A DNA stretch of 64,000 nucleotides, taken from positions 23,402 to 87,401 of the IMG/VR virus record IMGVR_UViG_3300047359_001782, one strand, 5' to 3'. This DNA is from a virus. Of the stretch, positions 1,558 through 63,253 are shown one piece after another (position 1 is the stretch's first letter; each line of letters begins with the position of its first letter). The notes under the pieces were generated by a model, which was given only the letters and a program-made list of their open reading frames with translations, was not told where the DNA came from and made no database searches. Both the position numbers and the translations under genes were made by a program.

Positions 1558-1565
1558 ATATACAC
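1558..1565 (-). promoter_or_regulatory. putative late promoter element GTGTATAT
   Basis: GTGTATAT lies 7 nt upstream of the lipoprotein ATG at 1550. It sits back to back with a second element on the other strand at 1573-1580. It matches the family of GTGTAAWA-like elements in front of virion and lysis genes in this window (see findings). Function is inferred from position only. Confidence 0.45.
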
Positions 1566-1572
1566 TATAGAT

Positions 1573-1580
1573 GTGTAACA
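1573..1580 (+). promoter_or_regulatory. putative late promoter element GTGTAACA
   Basis: GTGTAACA is followed by 6 nt (ACTTAT) and the ATG at 1587 of the protease gene. The spacing and sequence closely parallel the element at 15153-15160 (GTGTAATA, ACTTTA, ATG). It supports 1587 as the true start. Confidence 0.5.
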
Positions 1581-1586
1581 ACTTAT

Positions 1587-2495
1587 ATGATTGGAAGAAT
1601 AATTAAAAAAAATTTATACAAAAATAAAGTCTTAAATGTCCCCGAAACTCCTGTAGACGAAAGGGATTGGTTGTTTAGCGAAGATATGCTTGTCGGCAAT
1701 CAATCAGTCTCTAATAAAGAGTTTAGCAGAAAAAACTTAACCCCATCAGTTAAGAATCAAGGTAAGATAGGGTCTTGCGTTGGTCACAGCGGTAGGGTGG
1801 TTTATGGAGATACTCCAGAATTTAAAGCTAAAGAGCCAAGCGCTATGTGGATATATAAAAAAGGTAAGGAAAATGACCCGTTTCCCGGAGAAGATTACTC
1901 AGGAACAACAATAAAAGGCGCATGTAGGGGCTTGGTTATCGAGGGTTGCTGCGAAGAAGAATATTGGCCATACAGGGATAACGAAGACACTCAGATGATA
2001 GAGGGGGCACAGCAGAATGCTTCTAAGTATAAAATTGAGTCTTATCATGTTGTTTTGAAAAGTAATCATAATTTAATTAAAAAGGCTTTGCTTCAAGAAT
2101 CTTTATGGACATCTATTAATGTGCACGAAGCTTTATACTACACCCCATCAAATGGAATTGTTAACTCAGAAAAATACTTAAAATCTAAACCGATTGGAGG
2201 TCACGCTATAGCTATGACCGGCTGGGAAATAATTGACGGCGATTTATATTGGGAGTTTCAGAACAGTTGGGGTAAATGGTTTGGTAAAAGAGGTTTTTTT
2301 TACTTGGAAAGCTCTTTGTATGAAAAAATACTAATTAATGCTCTAGGCCCAATCTATTTAAAAACTAAATCTGATTCCTTACCCGTAGACCCGAATAAAA
2401 AAATAGAGCCTAAGAAAAATAAATCTATTTTTAGAATAATAGGAATGGCCGTCACTTCAATTCTAGCTTGGTTGTCTAAAAAAATATTTAAGTAG
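1587..2495 (+). CDS. papain-like cysteine protease (C1A) with C-terminal membrane anchor
   Basis: 302 aa. The papain-family catalytic set is visible: oxyanion Gln58 and nucleophile Cys64 in VKNQGKIGSCVGHS, His206 in PIGGHAIAMTGW and Asn226 in FQNSWGKW. The early segment VPETPVDERDWLF resembles the leader of other bacterial C1A enzymes. Residues about 283-300 form a hydrophobic helix followed by lysines (a probable membrane anchor), so the enzyme may work at the host envelope or in a membrane-bound precursor. The ATG at 1587 was chosen over an in-frame ATG at 1506 because the longer form overlaps the divergent lipoprotein and because of the promoter-like element 6 nt upstream. Possible roles are virion protein processing, host protein cleavage at lysis, or entry; none is demonstrated. 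Confidence 0.85.
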   Translation: MIGRIIKKNLYKNKVLNVPETPVDERDWLFSEDMLVGNQSVSNKEFSRKNLTPSVKNQGKIGSCVGHSGRVVYGDTPEFKAKEPSAMWIYKKGKENDPFPGEDYSGTTIKGACRGLVIEGCCEEEYWPYRDNEDTQMIEGAQQNASKYKIESYHVVLKSNHNLIKKALLQESLWTSINVHEALYYTPSNGIVNSEKYLKSKPIGGHAIAMTGWEIIDGDLYWEFQNSWGKWFGKRGFFYLESSLYEKILINALGPIYLKTKSDSLPVDPNKKIEPKKNKSIFRIIGMAVTSILAWLSKKIFK

Positions 2496-2538
2496 CAATC
2501 GTTTTTTTTAAAAAAAATTATTCTTAGGGTGTTTGGTA

Positions 2539-3198: not shown

Positions 3199-3368
3199 AG
3201 GTTTTTAATTTCTTTAAAATACTTTTCTACATCTTGTATCTCAAGTAGAATTTTTTTATGATTGTTTTTTCTGGGTTTATTGACTGCCTGTAATAATTCG
3301 ACAGAAAGCTCAGCCAGCTCCTCTGCGCATTTTAAAAAAAAGAATTTATCTTGATCTGATAATTTCAA
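3195..3368 (-). CDS. small MazG-like protein (TTG start)
   Basis: About 57 aa, hand-translated. It begins with TTG overlapping the previous stop (TTGA) and ends overlapping the next start (ATGA), so translational coupling is likely. Sequence features are FLKCAEELAELSVELLQ, a basic linker, then LLEIQDVEKYF. The EELAE...E...LLEIxD arrangement resembles the helical metal-binding core of short phage MazG-like NTP pyrophosphohydrolases, which hydrolyse nucleoside triphosphates to monophosphates. It is shorter than most members, so the assignment is tentative, and the TTG start is supported only by the overlap geometry. Confidence 0.5.
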   Translation of the reverse strand: MKLSDQDKFFFLKCAEELAELSVELLQAVNKPRKNNHKKILLEIQDVEKYFKEIKNL

Positions 3369-3982: not shown

Positions 3983-3988
3983 GCTAGT

Positions 3989-4017
3989 ATTATCTCATAT
4001 ATTCGGTTTTATGTCAA
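3989..4017 (-). promoter_or_regulatory. sigma-70-type early promoter
   Basis: On the minus strand, -35 TTGACA (4017-4012), exactly 17 bp, then -10 GATAAT (3994-3989). The start codon of the WYL-like gene follows 6 nt later, so the transcript should begin at or next to its ATG. The core ATATATGAGATAATACT is shared with the promoter at 7336-7364. Confidence 0.85.
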
Positions 4018-4026
4018 GGCTTAATT

Positions 4027-7335: not shown

Positions 7336-7364
7336 ATTATCTCATATATATAGTTGTAAGTCAA
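7336..7364 (-). promoter_or_regulatory. sigma-70-type early promoter
   Basis: Minus-strand -35 TTGACT (7364-7359), exactly 17 bp, -10 GATAAT (7341-7336), then 8 nt to the ATG at 7327. It shares the core ATATATGAGATAATACT with the promoter at 3989-4017, so the two may be under common control. Confidence 0.85.
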
Positions 7365-7528: not shown

Positions 7529-7555
7529 AAGGTATTAATACACAAAAATTTAAAT

Positions 7556-7922
7556 TGGTGGACGTGGCGGGAGTCGAACCCGCGTCTTTAAACCTTCAAT
7601 GATGTACATCTACAAGTTTAGTTAATTTTTTTTAAAGTTATGATATTAACATCCAACTACCTGTTTCAATTATTTGCAGTTTGTGATACAGGAAAACTTT
7701 TATCTGTTTTGCAGATTGATGACCTCGTAATCTTTCTATCTGCGTCAAAAGCTACGAGGTGGCATGCGTTACGCTGCCAAAGCAAAAGCCTCGCTTTTTG
7801 GAGCGAAGCTTTTGACACGACTAAGATTTTTGCCATGTAATTTTTTGTGCCTTTTTTAGGAGCCAGACACACTCCTACTTGCAGTACATAAATTCAATTT
7901 AAATCGAATCCGGTACACGCCC
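7556..7922 (-). ncRNA. ssrA: transfer-messenger RNA (tmRNA), phage-encoded
   Basis: 367 nt. On the minus strand the 5' end GGGCGTG (7922-7916) pairs over 7 bp with CACGTCC before an encoded CCA (3' end 7556). The third pair is G-U, the identity signal for alanyl-tRNA synthetase. The T-arm GCGGG-TTCGACT-CCCGC is perfect. The 5' region has TGTACCGGATTCGAT, as in other tmRNAs. Near the middle, TTAGTC precedes a reading frame that ends GCT TTG GCA GCG TAA. The predicted tag is VKSFAPKSEAFALAA or one residue longer, with the classic ALAA degron. The resume codon is uncertain: GTG, directly after TAGTC, would be out of frame with ALAA, so GTC at 7816-7814 is preferred. A 12-bp hairpin lies inside the tag sequence. 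It rescues stalled ribosomes and tags peptides for proteolysis. It lies 15 nt downstream of the holin-like gene. Confidence 0.93.
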
Positions 7923-12110: not shown

Positions 12111-12139
12111 ATTATATCAGACAATAACTTTAATGTCAA
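12111..12139 (-). promoter_or_regulatory. consensus sigma-70 early promoter
   Basis: Minus-strand -35 TTGACA (12139-12134), 17 bp, -10 TATAAT (12116-12111), both perfect. The ATG at 12104 is 6 nt from the -10, implying a leaderless message. It drives the six-gene GMP-reductase operon. Confidence 0.92.
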
Positions 12140-13796: not shown

Positions 13797-15116
13797 TTAA
13801 CTAATTCTTTGTTTCTCTTTTTCGGTTGTTATCGTGTGGACGGAAAAGTTTTGTTGAGGAGGATTTTGAAAATTTAATATGTATCCAGTGGTATTTACAC
13901 CTGAAACTACGAATCGATCTTCTGCTTCTAGATTTTCTGGACTAACTAATATTTTAATATCTTCATGGTTATTGGGTAAATTTATGGAATATTGATGGCT
14001 GCCAGATTCTAAATCAACAGAAGATCTATATATGTCTTTTTTTTTGGACGAAAAAATTGAACTAGAATTTAGCATTGCAATAGTATGGATTTTGGAGGTT
14101 TCATTTTCAATATCGCTATCAAAAGTTATTTGATATCCATACTTATCTATATTGCTTATTAAAAAGTTATTTACGCCTGTTTTATTAATCAGGCAGTTTT
14201 CTGTAGCCACAGAGACTACTGGTGTTTCTCTAAACGTTTTTGGAAAAAGTATATCAAAATTTTTCTCTCCAGAATTTATCTCTGTTTTGAAAGCTATAGA
14301 CTCTTCTCCTCCACCAAAAAATTTACCTGAAGTATTGCTGACTGAGGATATAAAAGAAGTTTCATCAAAAGAAACTTCTCCGGAATTAACCCCGTTCTGC
14401 ATTAGATAGTCTTCACCGATTTTTATTTTATCGGAAATGCGGCATGTCCCTGTATTGGATAAATTTAAAAAAATGTCAGAATCATTTTCAAAAATTAAAT
14501 TTTGGTTAGACATGGACAATTCTGATTGAGTGAAGTTTATTTTTTCTTTGAAAAACAAGTTCTTTCCGCTAACCGTTAAATCTTCTGAGTTATAGATGTC
14601 TCCGCTTAAGTTTATAGAGTTGGTTTTTAGTTTATTTAAGTCTACATTTTCGCTGCTCAGGTATTTAAAGACGCTTTCTTGGTTTGAGTTAAAAAAACAA
14701 TCCTCTGTGATGTAAATATCTTTTGTGTTAACCAAGGCTTTTTTTGTAACTTCATGCGTATTGACGCTATTAAAAAAACCAGTTGAACTCATGAAATTAA
14801 TTCCAGAGATATTTCCAGTAGATATAGGTCCGATTGAATTTATAGATAACCTACGATTTATTTCACAATCTTCATCAAAAATTTTTTGCCCGCTTATATT
14901 TTGATCCCCCCTGAGATGTATTGCATGAGTTAAGCATGAATTGTATAAACCAGAAAATGATATAATTTCATTGCTTATCTTTGGATTAATTACCATGAAA
15001 TACCGCTCATTATTAAGCTGAGAGTATGGAGGAGGGGAGCTTTCATAGTTAAAGCTCGTTCCGGAAGAAAAAAGTGGTGCAATCTTAGGTAATTCTGATA
15101 TTCTTTGATTTGGCAT
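13797..15116 (-). CDS. fibre-type virion protein, paralogue of the next gene
   Basis: 439 aa from the ATG at 15116 (MPNQRISELPKIAPLF); a longer in-frame start would run into the divergent gene and is rejected. The middle is a stalk of short NLSGDIYNSEDLTVSGKNLF-like turns. The C-terminal ~180 residues hold two H-type-lectin-like modules, KNFDILFPKTFRETPVVSV...FLISNIDKYGYQITF and HQYSINLPNNHEDIKILVS. The shared phrase 'xxFPKTFxxxPxV' and the stalk style show common ancestry with 12143-13792. A GTGTAATA element lies 12 nt upstream of the start. Confidence 0.65.
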   Translation of the reverse strand: MPNQRISELPKIAPLFSSGTSFNYESSPPPYSQLNNERYFMVINPKISNEIISFSGLYNSCLTHAIHLRGDQNISGQKIFDEDCEINRRLSINSIGPISTGNISGINFMSSTGFFNSVNTHEVTKKALVNTKDIYITEDCFFNSNQESVFKYLSSENVDLNKLKTNSINLSGDIYNSEDLTVSGKNLFFKEKINFTQSELSMSNQNLIFENDSDIFLNLSNTGTCRISDKIKIGEDYLMQNGVNSGEVSFDETSFISSVSNTSGKFFGGGEESIAFKTEINSGEKNFDILFPKTFRETPVVSVATENCLINKTGVNNFLISNIDKYGYQITFDSDIENETSKIHTIAMLNSSSIFSSKKKDIYRSSVDLESGSHQYSINLPNNHEDIKILVSPENLEAEDRFVVSGVNTTGYILNFQNPPQQNFSVHTITTEKEKQRIS

Positions 15117-15128: not shown

Positions 15129-15136
15129 TATTACAC
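15129..15136 (-). promoter_or_regulatory. putative late promoter element GTGTAATA (left-facing)
   Basis: One arm of an inverted repeat (TTATTACAC, 16 nt, GTGTAATAA). Read on the minus strand it gives GTGTAATA 12 nt upstream of the ATG at 15116. Confidence 0.5.
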
Positions 15137-15152: not shown

Positions 15153-15160
15153 GTGTAATA
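15153..15160 (+). promoter_or_regulatory. putative late promoter element GTGTAATA (right-facing)
   Basis: The second arm of the inverted repeat. It is followed by 6 nt (ACTTTA) and the ATG at 15167, the same geometry as at 1573-1587 and 59758-59772. Confidence 0.55.
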
Positions 15161-15166: not shown

Positions 15167-17854
15167 ATGGCACAAGGAGTAATGGATAGGTTGACCTATG
15201 AGCGGTTAGGGGTAATATTGACTGACGCTCCTGCGTACAAGGAAGCTGGTTCAAAATATAAAGATTTGATTAGGGTTCAAAATATGAGTTACGACTTAAC
15301 TCATCAATCGACAGATATTAAAGCTATTGGAGCCGATGAGCTAGTTACTAGAGATGGACAAAGCCCTGTTGTGAGGGCTCCAGACGTTTCTTGTGATATA
15401 GGGTATTTATTTACCAACGGCCTTAACGAAAACAACATAGGGTTTCACTTGAGTAAAAATGGTAGTGTTTTAAAAAATTTTTTATTACAAAATCATACAG
15501 ACGACATAAATATATTGATTGTTTCATCCAACAAAAATGAAAATGAAGATCTTGTCTTTTTGGAATCGGAGCAAGACTTTGAAAATTTCAATATAATAGG
15601 TATAGGTAATGCATTTTTATCTCGTTATGCATACAGCGCATCAATAGGGCAATTTGCATCTAGCACAATTTCTTATGGAGGGAGTAATATCCAGTTTGAT
15701 TTATATTCTGAACAAAATAGACCAAAGCTCCCTGCTGTAAAACTGGGAGCAAATAATATAAGGTCAGAAGAAGTGCTTGAGCTAGCTCCGGGAAAATTTA
15801 CAGACTTTCATCACTCTTTTGATAAAATATTTGACTCCCATGTTTCTCCTGAAATTTCCGCAATTTCTCCCGGAACGATTAACGCTACAATTTTCAAAAT
15901 TAACGGGGATAGGGGTGGCGCTGTCGTTGATTCCGTAAATGCCGCAATTCAAAATATAAATATAGATCTTCCTATTCCTCGCCAAGCAATTTATGGATTA
16001 GGAAGTAATTTTATATTTGACCGAAAATTAAAATTACCAATTATAGGCTCTTTGTCTATAGATATGATATTAAGAGAATACTCTCAGGATAAATTGGACG
16101 GATTTTTAAACAAAACTAATACATATGACATAATTATCGATCATAAAATCGATCCTCTTTTGGCTGGTAATGAGGGAGATTTTTTCGCAGATGAAATTAG
16201 TGAGAAATTATACATAAACATAGGTGACTCAGAGTGGAAAAGTACTTCGCATGGGCAGGGCTCGACCGAAGAAAATACTTCAATAAGCTCTAGTCAAAAA
16301 GAGTACTTTTCTGGCGATTATAATTTTTATTATGCCAGAATAAAAGATTCTTTGTGGCTAAAGGTTCCTTTAGAGGAGAGTTTTTTCCAGGATCAAGAGG
16401 CGGATGTATTTCAGAAAATTTATCAAAATAATTACATTCATATTAAAACAGAGAGTTCTTGGGTCAAGTTTCTTGTTGAAGATCTGGTTTTAGATAATGA
16501 TCTAATTGAGGGACTATCTTTTGAATCTAAAAGTAAATTAGTTAATAATATAACATTTGAAATTAATAATGCTCAACTTCAAAATCAATCTTATAGTCAC
16601 GAAATAGGTTCTGATGTTATGGTAAGTTCAGCCCTATCTTTTGGGGTTTCTAGAGACGACGGTTTAAAACTTTACCCTCGGTTTTTAGCGAGAGTAGCTC
16701 CAGTTTGGGTGACTAATATAGATAATATAACACACGAAGAAAATGATGAATCGCCTTTAAATTACGATAAAAATATAGATCTTGGTGATAGTAAAGTTAG
16801 TTTTTCTTTAGGTGGAGCTGACTCGGAATACTTTGAGGTTCATCCGAATGGAAATATATTTTTTATAGAGAGTCCTGATTTTGAGATCAAATCTTCATAT
16901 GCTTTATCTGTAACGGCAACAAATGAATCCGGGCATTCATTGAAAAATATAAATGTTCAAATTGTAGATAAAGTTGATTCTAACCCTGTTTGGTCTTTAA
17001 CTGAAGAAACTATAAATCACCCAGAGGGCACAAATATAGTAGAGTACAATCAGGATTTAAATATAGACCCAACCCATGCTTTTTATGGATTGTCCGGAGA
17101 AGACAAAAAGTATTTCTCCCTTTCCTCTTCGGGAGAACTTTCTTTTAGGTTCACTCCTGATTTTGAGACTGCAATTAAAAAAGATTTTGATATATTTATT
17201 ACTGCCTATAATCAGTTTGGTAACACAAGTAAGTATCTTAATATACAAATAGTTAACGTTCAGGATGCGGCTCCCGAGTGGGTCTCTAGCACCGATTCCA
17301 TCAATGTCGAAAGAGGCTCCTTGTCTTCTTTATTAATATCAAGCGAGATAAAAGAATTTGAAGATTATCCAGTGTTTTATACTTTGTCTGGACCAGATTC
17401 GCATCTATTTGAAATATCCAGTACAGGTGAGATTAGATTTATCGGAGACCCTCATTTAGTCAATAAAACGGCACTTTATTTTGAAGCTAGAGTATTTAAC
17501 TCCGCAGGTTCATCGAGTAAACAGTTTAAAATTGAGATCAATCAGCTTATATCTTTTGAAAATAGCAGAGTAGTGTTTCAAAAAAATGAACAGGGAGATT
17601 CTGTTAAGATTGGCGCTGTATTAAAGCAAAGATTATATCCTGCTTATATTTTCCAGGAAGATTATTCCGTTCCCAGTTTTGTTTATTTTGCTTTAACTGG
17701 GTACGGTTGGTTTCAGGTGCCATTAACTGAGTCAGAGTTTAACAGCGATGAGTCATTAAATTTTTACGAAGAAGGGGATAAAATCTTTACAGATAATTTT
17801 GTTCACATATATACTAACTCAGGCGGATGGATGAAAACCGCAATTACACAATAA
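15167..17854 (+). CDS. tail-tube-like protein fused to three cadherin-like repeats
   Basis: 895 aa from the ATG at 15167; an ATG five codons later (15182, after AAGGAG) is an alternative. Residues about 1-320 and 450-525 parallel the tube protein at 17909-19183: LIRVQNMSYDL against LRRVQSANYSF, YLFTNGLNENNIG against YYLTNGINEKILG, NIIGIGNAFLSRYAYSASIG against NVIALGNGFVTNYSVEASVG. Three cadherin-like repeats follow (about 530-810), each with FSLGGADSEYFEV / LSGEDKKYFSLSSSGELSF / LSGPDSHLFEISSTGEIRF. The C-terminus has ALTGYGWFQVPLTES and YTNSGGWMKTAI hairpins. It may be a minor tube subunit displaying adhesive domains. A bidirectional terminator follows its stop. Confidence 0.75.
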   Translation: MAQGVMDRLTYERLGVILTDAPAYKEAGSKYKDLIRVQNMSYDLTHQSTDIKAIGADELVTRDGQSPVVRAPDVSCDIGYLFTNGLNENNIGFHLSKNGSVLKNFLLQNHTDDINILIVSSNKNENEDLVFLESEQDFENFNIIGIGNAFLSRYAYSASIGQFASSTISYGGSNIQFDLYSEQNRPKLPAVKLGANNIRSEEVLELAPGKFTDFHHSFDKIFDSHVSPEISAISPGTINATIFKINGDRGGAVVDSVNAAIQNINIDLPIPRQAIYGLGSNFIFDRKLKLPIIGSLSIDMILREYSQDKLDGFLNKTNTYDIIIDHKIDPLLAGNEGDFFADEISEKLYINIGDSEWKSTSHGQGSTEENTSISSSQKEYFSGDYNFYYARIKDSLWLKVPLEESFFQDQEADVFQKIYQNNYIHIKTESSWVKFLVEDLVLDNDLIEGLSFESKSKLVNNITFEINNAQLQNQSYSHEIGSDVMVSSALSFGVSRDDGLKLYPRFLARVAPVWVTNIDNITHEENDESPLNYDKNIDLGDSKVSFSLGGADSEYFEVHPNGNIFFIESPDFEIKSSYALSVTATNESGHSLKNINVQIVDKVDSNPVWSLTEETINHPEGTNIVEYNQDLNIDPTHAFYGLSGEDKKYFSLSSSGELSFRFTPDFETAIKKDFDIFITAYNQFGNTSKYLNIQIVNVQDAAPEWVSSTDSINVERGSLSSLLISSEIKEFEDYPVFYTLSGPDSHLFEISSTGEIRFIGDPHLVNKTALYFEARVFNSAGSSSKQFKIEINQLISFENSRVVFQKNEQGDSVKIGAVLKQRLYPAYIFQEDYSVPSFVYFALTGYGWFQVPLTESEFNSDESLNFYEEGDKIFTDNFVHIYTNSGGWMKTAITQ

Positions 17855-20098: not shown

Positions 20099-20722
20099 TT
20101 AAAAGTTTTTCGCGGAAACTCTTGAAGCTTCAATTGAATTTAAATTATCTTCAAATTTTGATAGAATATCTTTAATATATGGTATTCTAACCATTCCTCC
20201 TGAGCTTTTATTTTTGTTTTGGAAGCCTGCTCCAGATCGACTGGTTGCGCTCAACTTATTCATGTACTGACCGAGATTAGGGATTCCTCTACCTTCTATT
20301 TCTCTGAGCCAGCTAGCTCCATTTGACCAAGGCATAGGGGTGCTTGAATATAACTCTTGTAAGGAAGGGGATGTTACAATATATGTCCAAATGAAACCAT
20401 GCATTCCTATGCTTCTGTTTTTTATAAAAATATTTGTCTGTTCAAGTAGATTAGATAAAGGGCTAATTGGGTCAACCCCTTCTTGAAAACCTATAAACCC
20501 ATATAGATTTCCCTCTGGCAAAGTATTGGTGATATTCGAAGCGCCTGAGCCCGCCTTAAGTTCTCTAGTGACAGGGTGGCTTTGAAAGTCCCTAATCATT
20601 TGATTTTTTACGTTCCTAAATTGCTTTTCAATAATCAATCTTGCCTGCACAAGCAGATCTTTATCTTTTTTTACTTGAGATTTTACTGAATTTCTAATTG
20701 ATCTACTGAGTGCTTTGGCCAT
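20099..20722 (-). CDS. putative tail completion protein (gp10-like position)
   Basis: 207 aa. It has a basic helical N-terminus (SIRNSVKSQVKKDKDLLVQA, then IEKQFRNVKNQMIRDF), a central region with LPEGNLYGFIGFQEG and WTYIVTSPSLQELY, and a C-terminal helix. The helix-rich basic start and gene position (between connector and tube) suggest the HK97 gp10/lambda Z group, which caps the tail's head-proximal end. The sequence match is by character, not motif. The start overlaps the previous gene by 20 nt. Confidence 0.5.
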   Translation of the reverse strand: MAKALSRSIRNSVKSQVKKDKDLLVQARLIIEKQFRNVKNQMIRDFQSHPVTRELKAGSGASNITNTLPEGNLYGFIGFQEGVDPISPLSNLLEQTNIFIKNRSIGMHGFIWTYIVTSPSLQELYSSTPMPWSNGASWLREIEGRGIPNLGQYMNKLSATSRSGAGFQNKNKSSGGMVRIPYIKDILSKFEDNLNSIEASRVSAKNF

Positions 20723-21182
20723 TTTGTTCTATTGGTCTTAAAAATAATGTTATGAATTGAACTTTGTCAAAAAGCCCATGAGCTCTAGGGTCAGATTCTA
20801 CATGAAACATTCTTCCATCTAATTCTACTCTTTTCGCTTCTTTTAAATAATCATAATCCTCCAGTTTTAATTTTATTCTGACTACGCTACTAGGATCGGG
20901 CCTATTAACTTTTATTTGTGTTCCCGCTTCTCCAAATTGCTCAAGAGTTCTGTCGGTGTCATACCTTATTCTTGCTTTAAAAACTTTTTTAACAGGAACG
21001 TTTTGTACGCTAGGGGTCGATTTTCCAGAATTTCCGTATAGATAATTGTAATTAGGGTCTGTACTTATAATTACTTTCTTAGCTTCTTTGTAAACAATAA
21101 TATCCCTTCCGAATGTATCATGAAGGTTAAGTAAGTTTTCGGCAATACTCTCTTTTTCTTCAGCTGAAAAGAAATCTGTCAT
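20703..21182 (-). CDS. putative head-tail connector/closure protein
   Basis: 159 aa from the ATG at 21182 (MTDFFSAEEKESIAENLLNL). A longer start at 21203 would place the promoter-like element inside the gene, so it is rejected. A helical N-terminus precedes a beta-barrel-like part (KVFKARIRYDTDR, SSVVRIKLKLEDYDYLKEAKRVELDG, VQFITLFLRPIE). That layout is typical of head-closure or adaptor proteins. It is the first gene of the leftward neck/tube operon. Confidence 0.5.
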   Translation of the reverse strand: MTDFFSAEEKESIAENLLNLHDTFGRDIIVYKEAKKVIISTDPNYNYLYGNSGKSTPSVQNVPVKKVFKARIRYDTDRTLEQFGEAGTQIKVNRPDPSSVVRIKLKLEDYDYLKEAKRVELDGRMFHVESDPRAHGLFDKVQFITLFLRPIEQNGQSTQ

Positions 21183-21196: not shown

Positions 21197-21254
21197 TAAA
21201 CATTATTTTTTGTGTATCTCATTGTAGGCACAAGGTCAAATAAAGGTAAAATTA

Positions 21255-23365: not shown

Positions 23366-23373
23366 GTGTATAG
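23366..23373 (+). promoter_or_regulatory. putative late promoter element GTGTATAG
   Basis: GTGTATAG 26 nt upstream of the tape-measure ATG, leaving a short leader that carries AAGGAATAAGGAAAA (a good ribosome-binding site). The spacing differs from the leaderless class, so this is a weaker member. Confidence 0.35.
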
Positions 23374-23399
23374 ATACCTTATCTAAGGAATAAGGAAAA

Positions 23400-26300
23400 A
23401 TGGCTATTAATCTTGACGTACACGGTAATACACAACCTCTTGAGGCAGCGGTTCAAGCTGCAGTAAATAGAATTCGCAGAACGCCAATTAAAATAACTGT
23501 TGACGATAAGGGTGCGACGCAGCCCTTAGGCAACATGAAACGGGGCGCTGACGAATTTACAAAGTCAATGGAAGCGGCAAATGCTCGTATTATAGCATTC
23601 GGCGCCTCTATGGCAATTATAAATGGCGTAGCAGATTCTTTTAAGGCCATGGTTAGAAATATGGTTGAGGTTGAAAAATCTCTTGCAGATATTAATGTTG
23701 TTATGGGCTTGAATGCTCAGAGCCTTGAAAAGTTCAGCGATGGATTGTTTAAAGTCGCGAAAGAAACGGGAGCGGCATTTAAAATAGCCGCCGATGCAGC
23801 AACAGAATATGCTCGTCAAGGCCTCAACGTAGAGGAATCTCTTAAAAGAACCAAAGACGCTCTTATTCTTACTCGATTAACAGGAATGGATTCTGCAGAG
23901 GCAGTAAAGTCTTTGACTGCCGCCATGAATACTTACGGGCATCAAATAAAGGATACTACTCAATTGGTGAGTAAGTTTGCTGCGGTAGATGTAAAGTTTG
24001 CTGTTAGTGCAGAAGATTTTGCTGACGCTATTTCCAGAACTGGTGCTGCAGCAAAAGGAGCTGGCGTGGATATTGATGAATTAATAGGCTTGGTTACCGC
24101 TGCTCAACAACAAACTGCTCGAGGCGGAAAGGTTATTGGTAACTCGTTTAAAACAATTTTTACTCGTATCGGAAGGACAGATACATTAAATCAATTGGAA
24201 AATCTTGGAATTGCTGTTAGAGATATTGAAGGAAGAACTCTTGGAGCAAAGCGAATACTTAGTGATTTAGCAAATACATTTGATACATTATCTGAAGCTC
24301 AAAAGGCTCAAATAGCTCAAACTGTTGGTGGAGTTTTCCAAATCAACGTTTTAAAGGCTGTTCTTGGTGACGCCGCAAAACAAAATGGTATTCTTGCAAA
24401 TGCCACGCAAATATCTGCAAACGCAACAGACGAGGCTATAACAAAAAATGAACAATTAAGAAACACAATGGCCGCAATGGCCACAGAAACAGGTCTCGCA
24501 ATAAAACAAGTTAGCGCTCAAGCGGGCGAAATAGCATTAGGTCCTGGAATAGAAAAAGTGCTTAATACAGTTAAGGCTATCGCTGAAAATATAAGTGGTT
24601 CATTGGGTGATGGAGAAGGCGCTGGAAATGAATTCGCTAAAGGTTTATTAAGAGGTATTGGCAATGTTATTACGGGTCCTGGATTAGTAGTTTTAACGAC
24701 GGTATTTATAAAGTTATTTGGTCAAGCATTTAAGTTTACCAAAGACAGCTTAGGATCTCTAATTGGCATAACCAATGAAGCTCAAAAACAAAAAGCCATT
24801 CAAACATCGATTGTTACTTTATTTGGGCAAAACGCCGCGTTAAGTAAGGAAATGTTGCGCACAGATATAAGCAGGACAGAAAAAGAAAAAATAATTTTAA
24901 GTTTACTTAAAGCTCAAGTTGCTGAAGCTAATGTTTTAAATAACGTAAGTAAGCAGGCCGCTGCAACTTTATATACTAAAGGATATGGGGCAAACTTAAC
25001 CCCAAGAAAAGGTCGCGCCTACGGCCATATTCCTAATTTCGCTCATCCAGAGAGAGAGCAAGCTGCCAAAGGTGGATATTCTGCAGGAAATATTCGAGAA
25101 ATGAATATGCCTGGAGAGGGCCCAATTATTTACAATAGCTCTGAGACAGTTAAGAATTTTAAGGGAATGAATCAGCCTGCAATTATGCCTCCTCAATCAA
25201 GCAAAGCTGGAAAAAACTATCAACAAGCATTTGGGGATATACATGGATTTGATCCGTATGCTGCAGGGGGATATATACCGAATTTTGCGAAAAAAACTGC
25301 GGCCGAATATTTAGAGAATGCAAGAAATGCAAAAACAACCGCTAATTTAACAAACATTGTTAAGGGGCGGCAAATAGGAGGGGTGACATTCTCCCCCGAA
25401 CAACAAGCTGCTGCAGCTGCAGCTTTACGAGAAAGATCTGCAGCAATAAAAACCGTATCAACCTCTAGTCAATTAAAAGCAAAAGATAATGATGTTATCA
25501 GTCAGATATATAATAAAAGTGGTAAAATGGTTTTGTTTGCCGCATCCGCCCAAGGGGGAGGTTCTTATGCTGGAGACAGAAAGAAAAACATTATTTATTT
25601 AAATCCCAATCCAACAAAAGGAGGTTCGAAGTTTAGCACAACCAATAAAACGGGTATGGTACCCGTGAATGTTCCATATTTTACTATTGGTAAAAACGAT
25701 GAAGAACGAGCTAAGAACGATCCTAAAATTAAAAATAAGATCGAGGGGGACTTGGTCAATCAGGCGCAAAAAACCACAAATCATTTAGTAAGCACAATAT
25801 TCAAAGAGGAGTCTATACCTAATGTAATAAAACCTGGTGACGTTGCTGTTACAGTTGGTAATGTTTTTGAAAAAATTCTTATGTCTGTGCAAAAGGGGGT
25901 TGCAAAGGAAGCTTATGATGCAGACCCTCCAGGTAATGCTTTATTGGATATTCCTAGAGGCGGTAGAGATGCACTGTGGAATTTGTTTGGCGCGACTCCG
26001 CTTGGAAGTCTTGGCGCGGAAGCTAAAATAGCCCTAGGAAGTGACGGCGACGCTGCGCACCTTAAATCTGCTGCAGAAAAATTTTACAAGATCGATAGTT
26101 ATAAGGGCCCAGGAGGCAAAAAAGCCAAAGCATTTGCTCCAGCAGGACAAGCCCAAGTAAAAAGAGGTGGAACTAAAGCTTCAGGCCACATCCCTAATTT
26201 CGCAAAAGTAAAATGGTCCATTGATAAAAAGAAAGGTCAATATGGATTGACCGGGTCTCATATGGAATTAATGCAATTCGTGGATTACCTTGAAAGAGCT

Positions 26301-36734: not shown

Positions 36735-37053
36735 TATCCCTAGGCAGGTATTAAATCAAATTAAAGATTTATCTCATTTGCATCAAGATGAGGAAGTTTG
36801 TGGTATTATTTATAATAAATATAAAGATATTATGCCATGTCAAAATATTAGTAACAATAAATCTAATTCTTTTTGTATTGACCCTTATATGTTTATTGAA
36901 TATGATGTTGATGTAGTTTTTCATTCTCATATTACTGGTAGCTCTTACCCTTCTTGTTGGGATATGGAATCTTCAGCTAAAATAAATATACCATATTTAA
37001 TATATAGTTTAAGAGATAAAGACTTTTACTTATATAATAATATAGGTGTATAA
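36694..37053 (+). CDS. JAB/MPN metallopeptidase, lambda gpK-like N-terminal domain only
   Basis: 119 aa from the ATG at 36694. A TTG at 36727 would overlap the gpL-like gene by only 8 nt instead of 41 and fits the family start better. The JAMM zinc motif is VFHSHITGSSYPSCWDMESS (H-x-H, seven residues, then S and D), preceded by EEVCGII, where the glutamate completes the site. Lambda K has this domain plus a C-terminal NlpC/P60 cell-wall hydrolase; the latter is absent here. It probably cleaves a peptide during tail-tip assembly or DNA entry. Confidence 0.8.
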   Translation: MEVFLGQKNTALNDIPRQVLNQIKDLSHLHQDEEVCGIIYNKYKDIMPCQNISNNKSNSFCIDPYMFIEYDVDVVFHSHITGSSYPSCWDMESSAKINIPYLIYSLRDKDFYLYNNIGV

Positions 37054-54680: not shown

Positions 54681-54995
54681 TTAGGTTTTTCCTCTTATCA
54701 TTAATTCTCCTTTAGGTAAAACTAGAGTTCTTAGTACTGTAGCTGTATTATTGCAAGTTTTTATTCTCTGTACGTGCCCTGCTTTGTTGAGACGCGATAA
54801 GCTTGCGGATATCTTGCCGTAAGACATGCCTCCTAAATCTTGACCTATTTTCTTGTTCGATAAATATATAGCCTTTCCATGTGAGCCCTTGGACACAAGG
54901 TAATTATAGACAAGGAGGTCGTTACTAATCAATTTTCCATTTATTATGTCTAAATGAATCTCGAATGGAATCTGCGTAAATTTATTCAATACCAT
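54681..54995 (-). CDS. winged-helix DNA-binding regulator
   Basis: 104 aa. It starts MVLNKFTQIPFEIHLDII, followed by LLVYNYLVSKGS and a helix-turn-helix/wing: IYLSNKKIGQDLGGMSYGKI, then SASLSRLNKAGHVQRI (recognition helix and wing), and TVLRTLVLPKGEL. This is the layout of small phage winged-helix repressors and of replication-initiator DNA-binding domains. It is divergent from the dNMP kinase/sigma operon, and two operator-like repeats lie directly upstream, so it probably controls both promoters. The start may be this ATG or the in-frame TTG at 54989, which lies 6 nt from the -10 box. Confidence 0.75.
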   Translation of the reverse strand: MVLNKFTQIPFEIHLDIINGKLISNDLLVYNYLVSKGSHGKAIYLSNKKIGQDLGGMSYGKISASLSRLNKAGHVQRIKTCNNTATVLRTLVLPKGELMIRGKT

Positions 54996-55124: not shown

Positions 55125-55153
55125 TTGACATTTAGTTTAAAAGATGGTATAGT
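55125..55153 (+). promoter_or_regulatory. sigma-70-type early promoter
   Basis: -35 TTGACA (55125-55130), 17 bp, -10 TATAGT (55148-55153), then 7 nt to the ATG at 55161. Drives the rightward kinase/sigma/SSB operon as a leaderless message. Confidence 0.85.
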
Positions 55154-55160
55154 TTTAATT

Positions 55161-55457
55161 ATGAAGTTTTTAGACTTAAGTGAAGGCAGGTTTTATTTAG
55201 TAAGATGCTCTGATTGGGCTAATGTAATTCAAGCAGAAGACGAAACGCAGGCCTGCGTCGAGTCTCTAGTAGAAATGCTAGAGAGGAAGGGTAGGGATTT
55301 AAAACTGTCATCAGTAATGATAACTCAGAGATTAGGAAGTGATATTATGAGTGAAGATTACGATGAAGAAGTATGTTACCATTCGGTTTCAACTATGTTG
55401 GCGAACGCAGGTCAACACGAACTATCCTCTAACCTGAAATCTATTTTCGGAGCATGA
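55161..55457 (+). CDS. small acidic early protein, unknown
   Basis: 98 aa from the ATG at 55161 (MKFLDLSEGRFYLVRCSDWA). An in-frame ATG at 55125 overlaps the -35 box and is rejected. The protein is acidic, with ETQACVESLVEMLERKGRDL and a later YDEEVCYHSVSTMLANAGQHE. No recognised domain. First gene of the rightward early operon; the stop overlaps the kinase start by 4 nt. Early position and size are typical of host-modulating proteins, but no function can be assigned. Confidence 0.65.
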   Translation: MKFLDLSEGRFYLVRCSDWANVIQAEDETQACVESLVEMLERKGRDLKLSSVMITQRLGSDIMSEDYDEEVCYHSVSTMLANAGQHELSSNLKSIFGA

Positions 55458-56008
55458 GTGGAAAACTTATAGGGCTTTGCGGCTTAGCTAGGTGCGGAAA
55501 AGATAGTTTTTTCGAAGTATCCGAGAGTATTTTAAGTAAACAAGGTATAGATGTTAAGAGGTATGCATTTGCAGACTCCCTAAAGCAAGAGTGTGATGAA
55601 TTATTAAATAAATATGTAGGTATCTCAGCATTCACAGAGAAATCTTCAGAAAAAGAAATAATACGACCTCTGCTAGTTACGTACGGAACACATATAAGGC
55701 GAAAACTAAACCAGAACTGCTGGATAGATAAAATAAATAATGATGTATTAAAAAGTATATCTAACAATAAAATTGTTTTTGTCACAGACGTAAGGTTTGA
55801 GAATGAAATTAACTGGATACATAGTCTGAAAGGCGAAAGTATACATATAACTAGGGAAGGTAATTCAGCACCCAATAAAGAAGAATTAAAAAATGACCCG
55901 ATCCTTAAGGAAAAATCAACACAAAACATATATTGGAAAAACTTTGATTCAATAAAATCAAAAGATATATCGAATATAGTCAACAATATCTTACTATCTA
56001 TTCTATGA
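55454..56008 (+). CDS. deoxynucleoside monophosphate kinase
   Basis: 184 aa. The P-loop is GLCGLARCGKDSF (near residues 6-18). KRYAFADSLKQECDELLNKY, a YGTHIRRKLNQNCWIDKI lid-type segment and VFVTDVRFENEINWI match phage dNMP kinases (T4 gene 1 type). It phosphorylates dNMPs to dNDPs, recycling nucleotides released from host DNA and feeding replication along with dUTPase and dCMP deaminase. It overlaps both neighbours by 4 nt. Confidence 0.9.
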   Translation: MSGKLIGLCGLARCGKDSFFEVSESILSKQGIDVKRYAFADSLKQECDELLNKYVGISAFTEKSSEKEIIRPLLVTYGTHIRRKLNQNCWIDKINNDVLKSISNNKIVFVTDVRFENEINWIHSLKGESIHITREGNSAPNKEELKNDPILKEKSTQNIYWKNFDSIKSKDISNIVNNILLSIL

Positions 56009-56607
56009 TCACTGAATATACAGACCTAGAATTAATAAGTAACCTTAAGAATAATGTAGACGAACAGAATAGTCTAAAGATGTTAGTCGACAGGCATAGT
56101 GGAATATACCTAGATATGGTAAACTCATATTCGAGTCCAGATAATCCCTATATAGACTATCATGAGTTAATACGAGATAAGGAATATAAAATATATGACG
56201 CTGCATTAAAATTCGACGAAACAAGAGGGGCTAAATTCAGCACTTACTTAGGCAATGAAACGAAATGGATGTGCCTAAATACATACAATAGAAACAAAAG
56301 AAGACCTATGTTTAACAGCGAATACATAGAAAATATGAAAAAAGATAACGATATAGAAATAGAATGCGACACAATATCAGAGAGTATACGTAACGATTTA
56401 TTCGGGAAAGTTTTAAGTGCCATAGAAAAGCATCCAGACGAAAGGGTTGAAAAAATATTCAAAATGAGGTACATAGTCGGAAGAAAAAATAAAGTAATGC
56501 CTTGGAAGCAAATTGGAGACAGTATGAATTTAAGTATACAAGGATGCATAAATATACATAATTCAGCAATAGAAACATTTAAAAACGAATTAAAACAAGA
56601 TATATGA
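56005..56607 (+). CDS. phage-encoded RNA polymerase sigma factor
   Basis: 200 aa, near the size of T4 gp55. Region 2 is visible as KMLVDRHSGIYLDMVNSY and DAALKFDETRGAKFSTYLGN, then TKWMCLNTYNRNKRRP (regions 2.3-2.4). Region 4 is VEKIFKMRYIVG and MPWKQIGDSMNLSIQGCINI with a helix-turn-helix. Regions 1.1 and 3 are lacking, as in late or alternative sigma factors. It probably redirects host polymerase to late promoters; the GTGTAAWA elements in front of virion genes are candidates for its -10. Co-transcribed with the dNMP kinase and SSB genes. Confidence 0.85.
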   Translation: MITEYTDLELISNLKNNVDEQNSLKMLVDRHSGIYLDMVNSYSSPDNPYIDYHELIRDKEYKIYDAALKFDETRGAKFSTYLGNETKWMCLNTYNRNKRRPMFNSEYIENMKKDNDIEIECDTISESIRNDLFGKVLSAIEKHPDERVEKIFKMRYIVGRKNKVMPWKQIGDSMNLSIQGCINIHNSAIETFKNELKQDI

Positions 56608-58394: not shown

Positions 58395-58402
58395 GTGTAA
58401 TA
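58395..58402 (+). promoter_or_regulatory. putative late promoter element GTGTAATA
   Basis: GTGTAATA, 9 nt before the ATG at 58412, exactly at the boundary between replication/regulation genes and fibre genes. Confidence 0.5.
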
Positions 58403-59757: not shown

Positions 59758-59765
59758 GTGTAATA
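59758..59765 (+). promoter_or_regulatory. putative late promoter element GTGTAATA
   Basis: GTGTAATA followed by 6 nt (TATTAG) and the ATG at 59772. Starts 3 nt after the preceding stop codon. Confidence 0.55.
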
Positions 59766-59771: not shown

Positions 59772-62360
59772 ATGGCCACAAAAAATTTAGTCCCAAGAAA
59801 CAGCGGAGAAGGTAGCGTAGGTAAAATATCTAAACCCTGGGAATCCGGAGTTTTCGACAACCTGTATATCAAAGGCGTAGAATTTACTGCAGATCAATCG
59901 CTCGAAACTGGAGATAATGTTGAATTTAATAGCGGTAATTTCATAAATGGGCTAACAGTGGGCGGAATTGATGTGGCAACATCTGTTGATTCAATACAGC
60001 AAACATTAGAAGAAAGTTCTCCATTTATATTCTTCTCAGACGTATTAGATAATATAGGAGTTACTGATAAAACTTTTTACGAAAATACTCCTAATTCCGA
60101 AACTCATTTATCAGGAGTTGTAGTTGCAAAAGCGGAAGATATAAAAGCATATATTCAATGGGACGGACCTAATGATGAATACATTGGTCAAGCCTCAATT
60201 AACGGACAACAAATTCCTTTAAGCAATATATCTCAATTAGGTACAGACACAAGAAGATTTGAAGGTTATTTAGATAATTTAAATTTGATAGGAGAAACAG
60301 GTATAACTGGAGAGGCTAATGGTAGATCAGTAGTTTTACCCATATCAGAGCTAGGAGGAGGTCCGACACCAAATAATATACTCATTGATTCAATATCTAA
60401 TTCCACAGCTAAACCAGGAGAAGAGAAAGGATTAAGTCATTTAAAAGAAGGGGATTCGATCAACATATATATAGATTTTCCAACCAATGATGTAGATCTT
60501 ATAAAAATTCATGATTACGGAATAGCTAAAGAAATAGATTTCACCAATTACTCCCTTCAAAATGTGAATGGTTTTTATAGAGCTACTATCCCTATAGAGG
60601 TCTCAAGTCGAGAGGGGTCTCTTTCTGTAGCCGTACAAGCAATAAATTCTTTTGGGACTACAGGAGAATTAAAAGAGTCCTCAGACTTTGATCATGCTAG
60701 TGGAACAAGAGATGTAGATCAAACTTATCCTACAATCAACGCATCAAATCCCACATCATATAATGGAAGATCTGATGGCTTAAGAGAAGGAGAATCAACG
60801 TCATTTTCGAATACAATTTCAAATTGGATAAATAATACAGATACAGTCTCATACACACCGTTATCAAATGATATCTCAATAAACAATCAAAACACCTATT
60901 CTTCACTTAAAACAGTTAATTATCAAGGAGGGATATATAATAATTCAGACAATCTAGAAATATATGCGGTTCGAGTAGGTAATGGAGCTACAGACCGAAA
61001 AAGAGTTAATGTCAAAATAGCAAATGGACCAGTTATAGTTTCGACTCAAATGGATTCTCTAGCATCTTCAGCATCCAGCCCTCACATAGTAGGCACTACT
61101 GAAGTTAAAGCTGGAGACGTATTAAATGCAAAAATAGAAGTAGACGGAAAAGGTGTTTCTATAAATGATATATCTATATCTTTATCGAACTCAGGAATAA
61201 GCGATGGCTCGCAGATCTCCTACTCTTCAAGTTATTCAAAAACAACTTTATTAAACGGAAACTTTGAATTCTCTATTCCAATAAATGTATACGGAACATT
61301 AGGATATTCAACAAGAGACGGAGATCAACCCGCAACTTTTACCGCTAGAAATAATTTCGGAACATTAAGCGATCCAGTAACTACTACAGATACCGCAAGA
61401 ATATTAAATGGCATAATTCCCACAATAAACATATCAAACATTAATTATCCAATATATCAAGAAGCATTAAAACAACAAGAGTCTGCATCAATTGACATAG
61501 AAATATTAAACAAGGATTCAGTAGAATACTCTTCCCCTAACTCCCAGCTTTTAATATCTAATCCAAATACATATACTTTCACAAAATATTGCGCACGCAT
61601 TTCTGGATCATATAACATTGATGGAGATAATGGTGAAAATAATTTAAAAATATCTGCAATAAAAACCTCAAATGGTGTCTATGTGCAAGATTATGCAATA
61701 ATTAATATAGCAAACTCTCCACTAGATCTAACAATACTAAACTTAAACTCTTTATTAAACAGTTCGCCTGAAGGAGAAGATTACTCTTTTAACCTGCAAT
61801 CCAATCAATTAATGATCTCTTCTCCTACATTAAGCATTGATTCCTCGCAAGCATCCCCTTCAATTTTATCAATAAATTCTTCAGGTACAGGCAAAATAAG
61901 CAATTCCTTCATCTTAACAGTGTCGGATACAGACACTAAGGGTACGTTTAATTGGGTGGTTTCCGCAACAAATTTAGCGGGAATTACAACTACCACAATA
62001 GCAACAAATCCGACTTATACACTACAAGGATTTAATTCAAGAACAATTATAGCTTCACCGAATAACTTAGGCGCAGGTCTTGCGCCAGTAGGCACTTCAG
62101 TGACAAACCCCAATAATTTATCTTTCGAAAATGTATCCGAAGGTGGTACAGCTCCAAATGGAGGAACGATTTATACATACGAAAGCTATTCAGATGGAAT
62201 CCAACTAGATAATTCTTATGATTTAAATAATAAATTTACTGTATGTGATTCAAACGGAATCACAGATAGTAATGGAGACCATGTTTTTAATTTAGATAAG
62301 TTAAACAGGTCAGCAAATAGTTCTACGGCAAACCCAGCAACTTTTATTGTTTCAGAATAA
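59772..62360 (+). CDS. long tail fibre/adhesin with Ig-like repeats
   Basis: 862 aa. The N-terminus MATKNLVPRNSGEGSVGKIS, then WESGVFDNLYIKGVEF, is a fibre start seen in marine phages, where such a segment anchors the fibre. From about 200 there are repeating beta-sandwich units of ~110 residues, for example LREGESTSFSNTISNWINN, TEVKAGDVLNAKIEVDG and YQEALKQQESASIDIEIL, each followed by an 'FxxxNNFGTxSxP'-like turn. Ser/Asn/Thr content is high and cysteine nearly absent, as expected for a secreted-type adhesin. Its stop directly abuts the convergent gene. Probably binds host surface. Confidence 0.7.
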   Translation: MATKNLVPRNSGEGSVGKISKPWESGVFDNLYIKGVEFTADQSLETGDNVEFNSGNFINGLTVGGIDVATSVDSIQQTLEESSPFIFFSDVLDNIGVTDKTFYENTPNSETHLSGVVVAKAEDIKAYIQWDGPNDEYIGQASINGQQIPLSNISQLGTDTRRFEGYLDNLNLIGETGITGEANGRSVVLPISELGGGPTPNNILIDSISNSTAKPGEEKGLSHLKEGDSINIYIDFPTNDVDLIKIHDYGIAKEIDFTNYSLQNVNGFYRATIPIEVSSREGSLSVAVQAINSFGTTGELKESSDFDHASGTRDVDQTYPTINASNPTSYNGRSDGLREGESTSFSNTISNWINNTDTVSYTPLSNDISINNQNTYSSLKTVNYQGGIYNNSDNLEIYAVRVGNGATDRKRVNVKIANGPVIVSTQMDSLASSASSPHIVGTTEVKAGDVLNAKIEVDGKGVSINDISISLSNSGISDGSQISYSSSYSKTTLLNGNFEFSIPINVYGTLGYSTRDGDQPATFTARNNFGTLSDPVTTTDTARILNGIIPTINISNINYPIYQEALKQQESASIDIEILNKDSVEYSSPNSQLLISNPNTYTFTKYCARISGSYNIDGDNGENNLKISAIKTSNGVYVQDYAIINIANSPLDLTILNLNSLLNSSPEGEDYSFNLQSNQLMISSPTLSIDSSQASPSILSINSSGTGKISNSFILTVSDTDTKGTFNWVVSATNLAGITTTTIATNPTYTLQGFNSRTIIASPNNLGAGLAPVGTSVTNPNNLSFENVSEGGTAPNGGTIYTYESYSDGIQLDNSYDLNNKFTVCDSNGITDSNGDHVFNLDKLNRSANSSTANPATFIVSE

Positions 62361-62549
62361 TTAAACTGAATCAAAATCAGCTTTAGTACAAAATTTTGTT
62401 AATTTAGTTCCATCCTCATCTACAGCTTTTAAAGAATATCTTATAGATAATTTTCCTGCCTTAGTAGTCTTTTCATATGTTTTTTTAGAAACTTTTTCTT
62501 CAGGTATTAATACCTTTTGTTTTTTCTTTACATTATAAAACTCTATCAT
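62361..62549 (-). CDS. small conserved basic protein
   Basis: 62 aa. MIEFYNVKKKQKVLIPEEKV, then YEKTTKAGKLSIRYSLKAVD and DGTKLTKFCTKADFD. This resembles short proteins of the DUF5679-like type (FYNVKxRxKVxxPxxKV ... DGTKLxxFVxK), but without their paired zinc cysteines. Function unknown. It shares an operon with the J-domain gene upstream (9-nt gap). Its stop abuts the fibre-gene stop on the other strand. Confidence 0.55.
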   Translation of the reverse strand: MIEFYNVKKKQKVLIPEEKVSKKTYEKTTKAGKLSIRYSLKAVDEDGTKLTKFCTKADFDSV

Positions 62550-62558
62550 AGTTTATGA

Positions 62559-63239
62559 TTATAAAGGCTTTTGATTTTTTGTCAATAATTCAAATATAGA
62601 TTTCTTAATATCAGGATTTCCCTTGTGCCACTTATACATTATATCATTCCTAATATGATGTATCTGTTTTTGCATTTTTTGTATCTCTTTCTTTAATTGG
62701 CTTATAAATTCTGGAGATATATTTTTAATACCTATATTTAGCTCTAAGGCTACCTTTAGTATTTTGCGAAAATCTCCGTTTTGTTTTCCCTCTATAACCT
62801 CATTATACATATCTAGTCTTTCATTCAATTCGTCTTTTGGTAAGTTTTTATTTAAATCTGGATGAGTTTTTTTAACAACTTCTCGAAATAAATCATTCAT
62901 CTCATCGTTAGATAACTCAGTAGATCCATCTCTTTCATCAGGAACGGACTGAAATGGGTCTTGTATTTTTTTATTATTACAGTAATCAAGCATTTTACCT
63001 ATAAAATCTCTTCTAATTTCATCAAATTCTTCAACTAAGTCTTCATATTCCATATTCAAATATATAGCTTTATGCCTTAATTTATTAAATATTTTCTTTA
63101 ACTTTTTTTGAGCTTGAGGTTCAGAATATCTTGTTGGTAAATTTTCTTTAATAAACTTTTTATTGCCAGGCTCATATTTGCCCAGAGGATGCTTCTCTCT
63201 CTCCGAAAATAAATCATTAAACAAATCTTTTTCATTCAT
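62559..63239 (-). CDS. J-domain (DnaJ-like) protein
   Basis: 226 aa. A divergent J domain lies at about 110-165: DEMNDLFREVVKKTHPDLNK with the essential His-Pro-Asp (126-128), then ELNERLDMYNEVIEGKQNGD and FRKILKVALEL. J domains stimulate the ATPase of host Hsp70 (DnaK). The N-terminal 100 residues are charged helix (YSEPQAQKKLKKIFNKLRHK) and the C-terminus has another helical pair; either may bind a virion client. Flanked by fibre genes and led by a late promoter element, it probably helps fold large fibre proteins. Confidence 0.75.
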   Translation of the reverse strand: MNEKDLFNDLFSEREKHPLGKYEPGNKKFIKENLPTRYSEPQAQKKLKKIFNKLRHKAIYLNMEYEDLVEEFDEIRRDFIGKMLDYCNNKKIQDPFQSVPDERDGSTELSNDEMNDLFREVVKKTHPDLNKNLPKDELNERLDMYNEVIEGKQNGDFRKILKVALELNIGIKNISPEFISQLKKEIQKMQKQIHHIRNDIMYKWHKGNPDIKKSIFELLTKNQKPL

Positions 63240-63245
63240 ATATTA

Positions 63246-63253
63246 TTTTACAC
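63246..63253 (-). promoter_or_regulatory. putative late promoter element GTGTAAAA
   Basis: Minus-strand GTGTAAAA, then 6 nt (TAATAT) and the ATG at 63239. It directly follows the T-run of the upstream terminator. Confidence 0.5.

What the first reader, a model, noticed from the sequence alone, without database searches (positions are those of the whole stretch)
1558..63253. Recurrent GTGTAAWA element in front of virion, lysis and chaperone genes: candidate late promoter
GTGTA[A/T][A/T/C]N occurs directly upstream of genes starting at 1550, 1587, 15116, 15167, 21182, 23400, 58412, 59772 and 63239. In five cases exactly 6 nt separate it from the ATG. None of these genes has a sigma-70-type -35/-10, and none of the metabolic operons has this element. 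The element at 58395 marks the switch from early to fibre genes. By analogy with the T4 late TATAAATA box, it may be the -10 read by the phage sigma factor at 56005-56607.
Basis: partly seen in the sequence, partly recalled or inferred. Interest (0 to 1): 0.8.

Follow-up and report, generated by a model that had tools for sequence, protein, structure and literature searches.

The report
Phage sigma late promoter, leaderless mRNAs
An uncultivated group of large tailed phages appears to switch on its virion genes with a short promoter box, GTGTAA, placed so close to the start codon that the messenger RNA should begin at the start codon itself, probably read by the phage's own sigma factor.

Summary
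The element is real and is very probably a promoter. Its raw count in the window is no more than chance, but its position is not. GTGTAA is the most enriched of all 4,096 hexamers just upstream of independently called starts, in this genome (8 of 26 copies, 0.33 expected) and in every sigma subgroup of its relatives (pooled 157 of 574 against 2.2 expected).
The box is GTGTA(A/T)(A/T)(A/T), with no -35, usually 8-9 nt (counted from GTGTAA) before ATG.
Short-spaced boxes have no Shine-Dalgarno (1/204), long-leader ones often do (13/33). A terminator T-run directly abuts the box at two kinds of locus. Early TTGACA-N17-TATAAT promoters also end 6-8 nt before ATG (181 of 264).
The sigma operon starts with such an early promoter in all 12 genomes checked. 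The sigma has regions 2 and 4 only. That it reads the box is inferred, not shown.
Boxes also precede some non-virion genes. Closest known kinds: T4 gp55 and phiEco32 gp36 promoters; neither sigma is a detectable sequence relative.

The parts
1573..1580 (+). box GTGTAACA, 6 nt before ATG 1587 (papain-family peptidase gene 1587-2495)
1558..1565 (-). box GTGTATAT, divergent partner; ATG 1550 of a weak short ORF
1334..1339 (-). GTGTAA, 10 nt before ATG 1323 (gene 1-1323); boxed in 2 of 3 genomes that have the gene
7538..7543 (-). GTGTAT, 9 nt before ATG 7528, just downstream of a tmRNA gene
15129..15136 (-). box GTGTAATA, 12 nt before ATG 15116 (gene 13797-15116)
15153..15160 (+). box GTGTAATA, 6 nt before ATG 15167 (gene 15167-17854); divergent pair with the previous box, also seen in L079 and L082
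21189..21196 (-). box GTGTAAAT, 6 nt before ATG 21182 (gene 20703-21182); boxed in 5 of 7 genomes
21212..21217 (+). GTGTAT, divergent partner; 37-nt leader to ATG 21255, head of the tape-measure/tail operon
23366..23371 (+). GTGTAT with a 28-nt leader and Shine-Dalgarno before the tape-measure gene 23400
37046..37051 (+). GTGTAT with a 24-nt leader and AAGG before GTG 37076 (J-like tail tip gene)
58395..58402 (+). box GTGTAATA, 9 nt before ATG 58412; box kept in 25 of 25 genomes with this gene
59758..59765 (+). box GTGTAATA, 6 nt before ATG 59772; kept in 16 of 19 genomes
63246..63253 (-). box GTGTAAAA, 6 nt before ATG 63239 (DnaJ-like gene); kept in 7 of 10 genomes
63254..63279 (-). intrinsic terminator GGCGGTCCTTAGGGACCGCC-TTTTTT whose T-run directly touches the box
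56005..56607 (+). sigma factor (sigma2 + sigma4, 200 aa), candidate reader of the box
55125..55153 (+). early promoter TTGACA-N17-TATAGT of the sigma operon, 7 nt before ATG 55161
3989..4017 (-). early promoter TTGACA-N17-GATAAT, 6 nt before ATG 3982
7336..7364 (-). early promoter TTGACT-N17-GATAAT, 8 nt before ATG 7327
12111..12139 (-). early promoter TTGACA-N17-TATAAT, 6 nt before ATG 12104
62558..62585 (-). early promoter TTGACA-N16-TATAAT, 8 nt before ATG 62549

Best explanation
GTGTA(A/T)(A/T)(A/T) is the -10-position element of a phage-specific, mainly late promoter that has no -35. Host RNA polymerase with host sigma-70 first transcribes early genes from TTGACA/TATAAT promoters, among them the operon that holds the phage sigma (56005-56607). 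The phage sigma then directs the host core enzyme to the box. In most cases the box lies so that +1 falls on, or within a few bases of, the A of ATG, so the first cistron is a leaderless mRNA. A minority of boxes lie 18-32 nt upstream and are followed by a normal leader, often with a Shine-Dalgarno. Shown here by sequence: the box, its spacing, its conservation, the missing Shine-Dalgarno, the abutting terminator and the early promoter of the sigma operon.
For: Annotation-free scan: GTGTAA + 8 nt + ATG is first of all hexamer/spacing pairs. It is first of 4,096 hexamers upstream of called starts in the own genome (p 9e-10), in four sigma subgroups down to 40% identity (p 6e-8 to 5e-27) and in a fifth, more distant set (p 2e-49). 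Pooled: 157 of 574 against 2.2 expected; of all single-base variants only GTGTAT is comparably enriched. The same method recovers the known T4 late box as rank 1 and finds no GTGTAA signal in T4, HTVC008M or P-SSM2. Orthologues keep the box: 25/25, 16/19, 7/10, 5/7. Divergent pairs 9 against 1.6 expected. Boxes and early promoters avoid each other (4 shared, 23 expected). Shine-Dalgarno: 1/204 at short spacing, 13/33 at long spacing. Terminator T-run touching the box, with variable hairpins. Early promoters calibrate the start: 181 of 264 end 6-8 nt before ATG. The terminase operon of the 184-kb relative starts with a box; its helicase and ribonucleotide reductase genes, and the operon that holds its DNA polymerase, have early promoters. 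Sigma family; early promoter at the head of the sigma operon in 12 genomes, with no box inside it in the ten relatives scanned.
Against: No transcript data exist for these phages. Some boxed genes are not virion genes, so 'late' may be 'middle and late'. The box is invariant across the family, so sigma and box cannot be shown to co-vary. Most of the 26 copies in the own genome lie inside genes, as chance predicts. Host unknown.
Confidence: 0.78

Rival explanations
1. The box is a late promoter, but it is read by host RNA polymerase with a host sigma plus another phage protein (activator or co-activator, for example the small winged-helix protein encoded divergently at 54681-54995), not by the 56005 sigma.
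For: The sigma-box link is by association only. A second candidate regulator lies next to the sigma operon.
Against: The box departs from a host -10 by G at the position of the key A (GTATAA is enriched only 5-fold against 70-fold). The sigma is present wherever a long record was tested (all 12 records of at least 65 kb, of which 3 were found through the box rather than the sigma).
Confidence: 0.13
2. The box is a translation start signal in the mRNA (a non-Shine-Dalgarno ribosome-binding motif), which is why its distance to ATG is nearly fixed.
For: Tight spacing of 8-9 nt and absence of Shine-Dalgarno at the same starts.
Against: A terminator T-run touches the box, so mRNA from upstream would end there. 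Copies also stand 18-32 nt from starts that have a Shine-Dalgarno. They sit back to back on both strands in divergent intergenic regions and avoid starts with an early promoter. Early promoters show the same spacing to ATG without the box.
Confidence: 0.04
3. The box is an operator for a dimeric regulator (TTACAC...GTGTAA inverted repeat) and the promoters are elsewhere.
For: Several inverted pairs, TTACAC-N9-16-GTGTAA.
Against: Most sites are single. The orientation points to the gene start, convergent pairs are nearly absent (1), and no other promoter is found at these starts.
Confidence: 0.04
4. Chance or composition artefact of an AT-rich genome.
For: Total count of the motif equals chance.
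Against: Position enrichment of 24-fold in the own genome and 70-fold pooled, replicated in subgroups and in orthologues; no such signal in other AT-rich phages.
Confidence: 0.01

Closest known systems
T4 late promoters (TATAAATA, sigma gp55)
   Same: Single box at the -10 position, no -35, virion genes, small phage sigma; recovered by the same scan in T4.
   Different: Box sequence GTGTAATA; leaders absent here, but in T4 the box lies mostly about 15-30 nt from the start and starts have a Shine-Dalgarno; the sigma here has a region 4 domain and no detectable sequence relation to gp55. Sliding-clamp coupling not tested.
phiEco32 / 7-11 phage promoters (tAATGTAtA, TGATGT), sigma gp36
   Same: Small phage-encoded sigma; a single box that contains TGT(A), in front of middle and late genes (PMC4331800); the sigma gene lies close to a nucleotide-kinase gene in both.
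   Different: Different box; long leaders with Shine-Dalgarno in phiEco32; no detectable relation of the sigmas.
Pelagibacter phage HTVC008M, T4-type late box ATAAATAG
   Same: The box ends 5 nt before ATG in six genes, so leaderless late mRNAs are predicted there too.
   Different: T4-type box, unrelated myovirus; no GTGTAA enrichment at starts.

Membership tests
Phage late promoter read by a phage sigma (general kind) | common box upstream of virion operons, absent from early-promoter genes | tested here: met
Phage late promoter read by a phage sigma (general kind) | phage-encoded sigma expressed from an early promoter | tested here: met
   sigma; early-type promoter by sequence, 12 of 12 genomes looked at
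Phage late promoter read by a phage sigma (general kind) | the sigma directs initiation at the box | not testable with these tools
   needs in vitro or in vivo transcription
T4 gp55 late promoter | TATAAATA box | tested here: not met
   box is GTGTA(A/T)(A/T)(A/T)
T4 gp55 late promoter | sigma homologous to gp55 (region 2 only) | tested here: not met
   region 4 domain present
T4 gp55 late promoter | dependence on sliding clamp and gp33-like co-activator | not tested
   no search made for these partners
phiEco32 gp36 promoter | tAATGTAtA box | tested here: not met
   consensus from PMC4331800
phiEco32 gp36 promoter | sigma homologous to gp36 | tested here: inconclusive
   no relation found, but compared with a single gp36 sequence only
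Sigma-70 family | region 2 fold and motif | tested here: met
   Pfam Sigma70_r2 hits in 32 of 33 members, best 7e-6, weak (0.15, below cut-off) for the window's own protein; profile match to RpoD region 2, E 1e-7; fold matches are sigma factors
Sigma-70 family | region 4 helix-turn-helix | tested here: met
   Sigma70_r4 in 6 of 33, phrog_36 in 32 of 33, helices 146-199 in the model
Leaderless mRNA | promoter position puts +1 on the start codon | tested here: met
   (by sequence)
Leaderless mRNA | mapped 5' end at the AUG | not testable with these tools
   no transcript data

The most novel reading that the evidence does not exclude
The whole lineage runs a two-stage transcription programme in which nearly every operon-head mRNA, early and late, is leaderless, so that phage messages use a separate route of ribosome entry, possibly favoured during infection by a phage-encoded change to translation (the lineage also carries its own tmRNA).
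Probability: 0.2. Interest if true: 0.85.

Novelty: new variant of a known kind. Interest (0 to 1): 0.64.

Why it matters
It gives a sequence-only reading of the early-to-late switch in a large uncultivated phage lineage (267 sigma-encoding stretches in IMG/VR; none found in the 50,697 named phage records). It predicts the exact 5' ends of its mRNAs, and it shows a phage genome built largely on leaderless messages, which makes leaderless translation in its host directly testable. The strict GTGT half of the box and the altered region 2 of the sigma offer a clean test of how a sigma accepts G in place of the key A of the -10 element.

Tried and rejected
Raw motif count in the window: no enrichment, so position had to be tested. 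Nearest named phage by DNA or sigma protein: none. Host by sigma homologues in bacterial genomes: only two full-length hits, MAG contigs labelled Halobacteriovorax and Flavobacteriales; not a reliable host call, since the contigs may be mis-binned phage. Sigma-box co-variation: not possible, because the box is the same in all groups down to 31-34% sigma identity. Contigs found through the box alone: all 3 of at least 65 kb carry the sigma, all 14 shorter ones (under 60 kb) lack it, which for fragments says little. phiEco32 as a second positive control: TAATGT ranks first at 14-100 nt, weakly. GTGTAA 5-9 nt before any ATG is not rare by chance in whole control genomes; only position relative to real starts discriminates.

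Full report
What the window is. The window is positions 23402-87401 of an 87,401-base virus record, part of a large tailed phage with a tape-measure gene (23400), a lambda J-like tail-tip gene (37076) and rIIA/rIIB-like genes. No named phage record matches the 25 kb of DNA searched or the sigma. The longest close relative, G006, is 184 kb, so this record is probably incomplete.

The observation. All listed boxes exist. The enrichment is positional. An annotation-free scan of all hexamers and 13 spacings before ATG puts GTGTAA + 8 nt first (7 against 0.43). With starts called by a separate dicodon model that does not know the motif, 8 of 26 copies lie 0-20 nt upstream of a start (0.33 expected, p 9e-10), the best of all 4,096 hexamers.

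Replication in relatives. The sigma protein finds 39 loci at 33-73% identity and 267 stretches with a profile. In loci grouped by sigma identity (60% or more, 47-50, 44-46, 40-43) GTGTAA is rank 1 each time, and again in a more distant set (31 of 64, 0.45 expected). Pooled over 149 loci with repeated contexts removed: 157 of 574 copies lie 6-12 nt before a start, 2.2 expected. Of the 18 single-base variants only GTGTAT (16-fold) comes near; GTATAA, GTGTAC and GTGTAG are 4-5-fold (the last two on 3-4 sites), ATGTAA 2.7-fold, the rest about background. These p-values rank the signal; the loci share ancestry and are not fully independent. Controls: in T4 the same method returns the known late box (TAAATA/TATAAA) first at 10-45 nt and Shine-Dalgarno at 4-14 nt, and GTGTAA is absent from starts of T4, HTVC008M and P-SSM2. 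Orthologues keep the box: gene 58412 in 25 of 25 genomes, 59772 in 16 of 19, 62559 in 7 of 10, 20703 in 5 of 7.

Anatomy. In 47 non-redundant sites the only information outside GTGTAA is T/A, A/T after it and general A+T richness; there is no -35. Spacing GTGTAA to ATG: 65 at 8 nt, 33 at 9, 20 at 10, 31 at 11. Divergent box pairs are 9 against 1.6 expected, convergent 1.

Leaderless design. Four observations agree. (a) Starts with the box at 6-12 nt have a Shine-Dalgarno (4 or more bases) in 1 of 204 cases, those with the box at 18-32 nt in 13 of 33, all starts in 272 of 2,326. (b) In front of the 62559 gene and its orthologues, and of a second gene, a terminator hairpin of variable sequence ends in TTTTTT that touches the G of the box: TTTTTT|GTGTAAtA|N6|ATG. 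If the terminator works, the downstream mRNA must start inside those 14 bases. (c) Early sigma-70 promoters in the same genomes (TTGAC..N16-18..-10) end 6, 7 or 8 nt before ATG in 181 of 264 starts, the textbook distance from -10 to +1. (d) The TGTAAT part of the box lies at about the same distance from ATG as TATAAT. That +1 is the A of ATG is an inference from position.

Two classes. Early promoters and boxes share only 4 starts, 23 expected. In G006 the early region is dense in early promoters; the helicase and ribonucleotide reductase genes and the operon holding DNA polymerase carry them, while the terminase operon, a tail-region gene and fibre genes start with a box. But boxes also precede ribonucleotide reductase, a polynucleotide-kinase-like gene and a ClpA-like protease in some relatives, so the class is 'mainly late', perhaps middle and late.

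The sigma. The family (33 members aligned) matches sigma-70 region 2 (Pfam hits in 32 of 33, weak for the window's own protein; RpoD by profile) and region 4. The model has two helical domains and a low-confidence linker, and the fold matches listed are overwhelmingly sigma factors. In the alignment to RpoD, W433 of sigma-70 corresponds to an invariant N84, and I439, T440 and R441 to invariant C90-L91-N92; which of these read the box is speculation. The sigma operon starts with TTGACA-N17-TATAGT-N7-ATG at 55125-55161 here, with a similar promoter at the head of the G006 operon, and with one 0.9-1.6 kb upstream of the sigma gene in ten loci scanned. So the TTG-start ORF at 55125 is an artefact of the -35. 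The chain host sigma-70, then phage sigma, then box is consistent but not demonstrated.

Comparison. The kind is known: T4 gp55 with TATAAATA, phiEco32 gp36 with tAATGTAtA (PMC4331800). This sigma shows no detectable relation to gp55 or to the one gp36 sequence tried, and the box differs, so it is not filed as a member of either; it works like them. The AR9 paper remarks that phage transcripts are often leaderless (PMC5312081), so leaderless phage mRNA as such is not new. A lineage in which both promoter classes are placed this way was not found in the papers searched, which is a limited search.

Limits. No transcript data; host unknown; starts are predictions; fragments limit absence claims.

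Noticed in passing
window 7556-7922 (-): Complete one-piece tmRNA gene (Rfam RF00023, 135.5 bits), missed by ARAGORN; reading the tag frame by eye gives GKNLSRVKSFAPKSEAFALAA-stop. Relative G006 has one too (L046 7321-7682).
   Followed up: partly
L164 (Pelagibacter phage HTVC008M) starts 6280, 16007(-), 18916(-), 19456, 31132, 49760: T4-type late box ATAAATA ends exactly 5 nt before ATG in six genes, so leaderless late mRNAs are predicted in a SAR11 phage; PMC7029224 reports that late-promoter prediction failed in such phages.
   Followed up: partly
window 23366-23400 and relatives: Leader of the tape-measure gene has CCTTAT...ATAAGG that could pair and hide the Shine-Dalgarno; similar leaders recur in relatives.
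   Followed up: no
window 54681-54995 (-): Small winged-helix-like protein (weak Pfam hits) encoded divergently from the sigma operon; a possible second regulator. Its upstream region holds a twice-repeated ACGTTCAATTTTTxGAATGT.
   Followed up: no
window 63571-64000: 150-base direct repeats inside a coding region at the window end.
   Followed up: no
L001 17122-17211 (-): tRNA gene by Rfam, outside the window.
   Followed up: no
window 1587-2495 (+): Papain-family (C1) cysteine peptidase gene under the late box.
   Followed up: no
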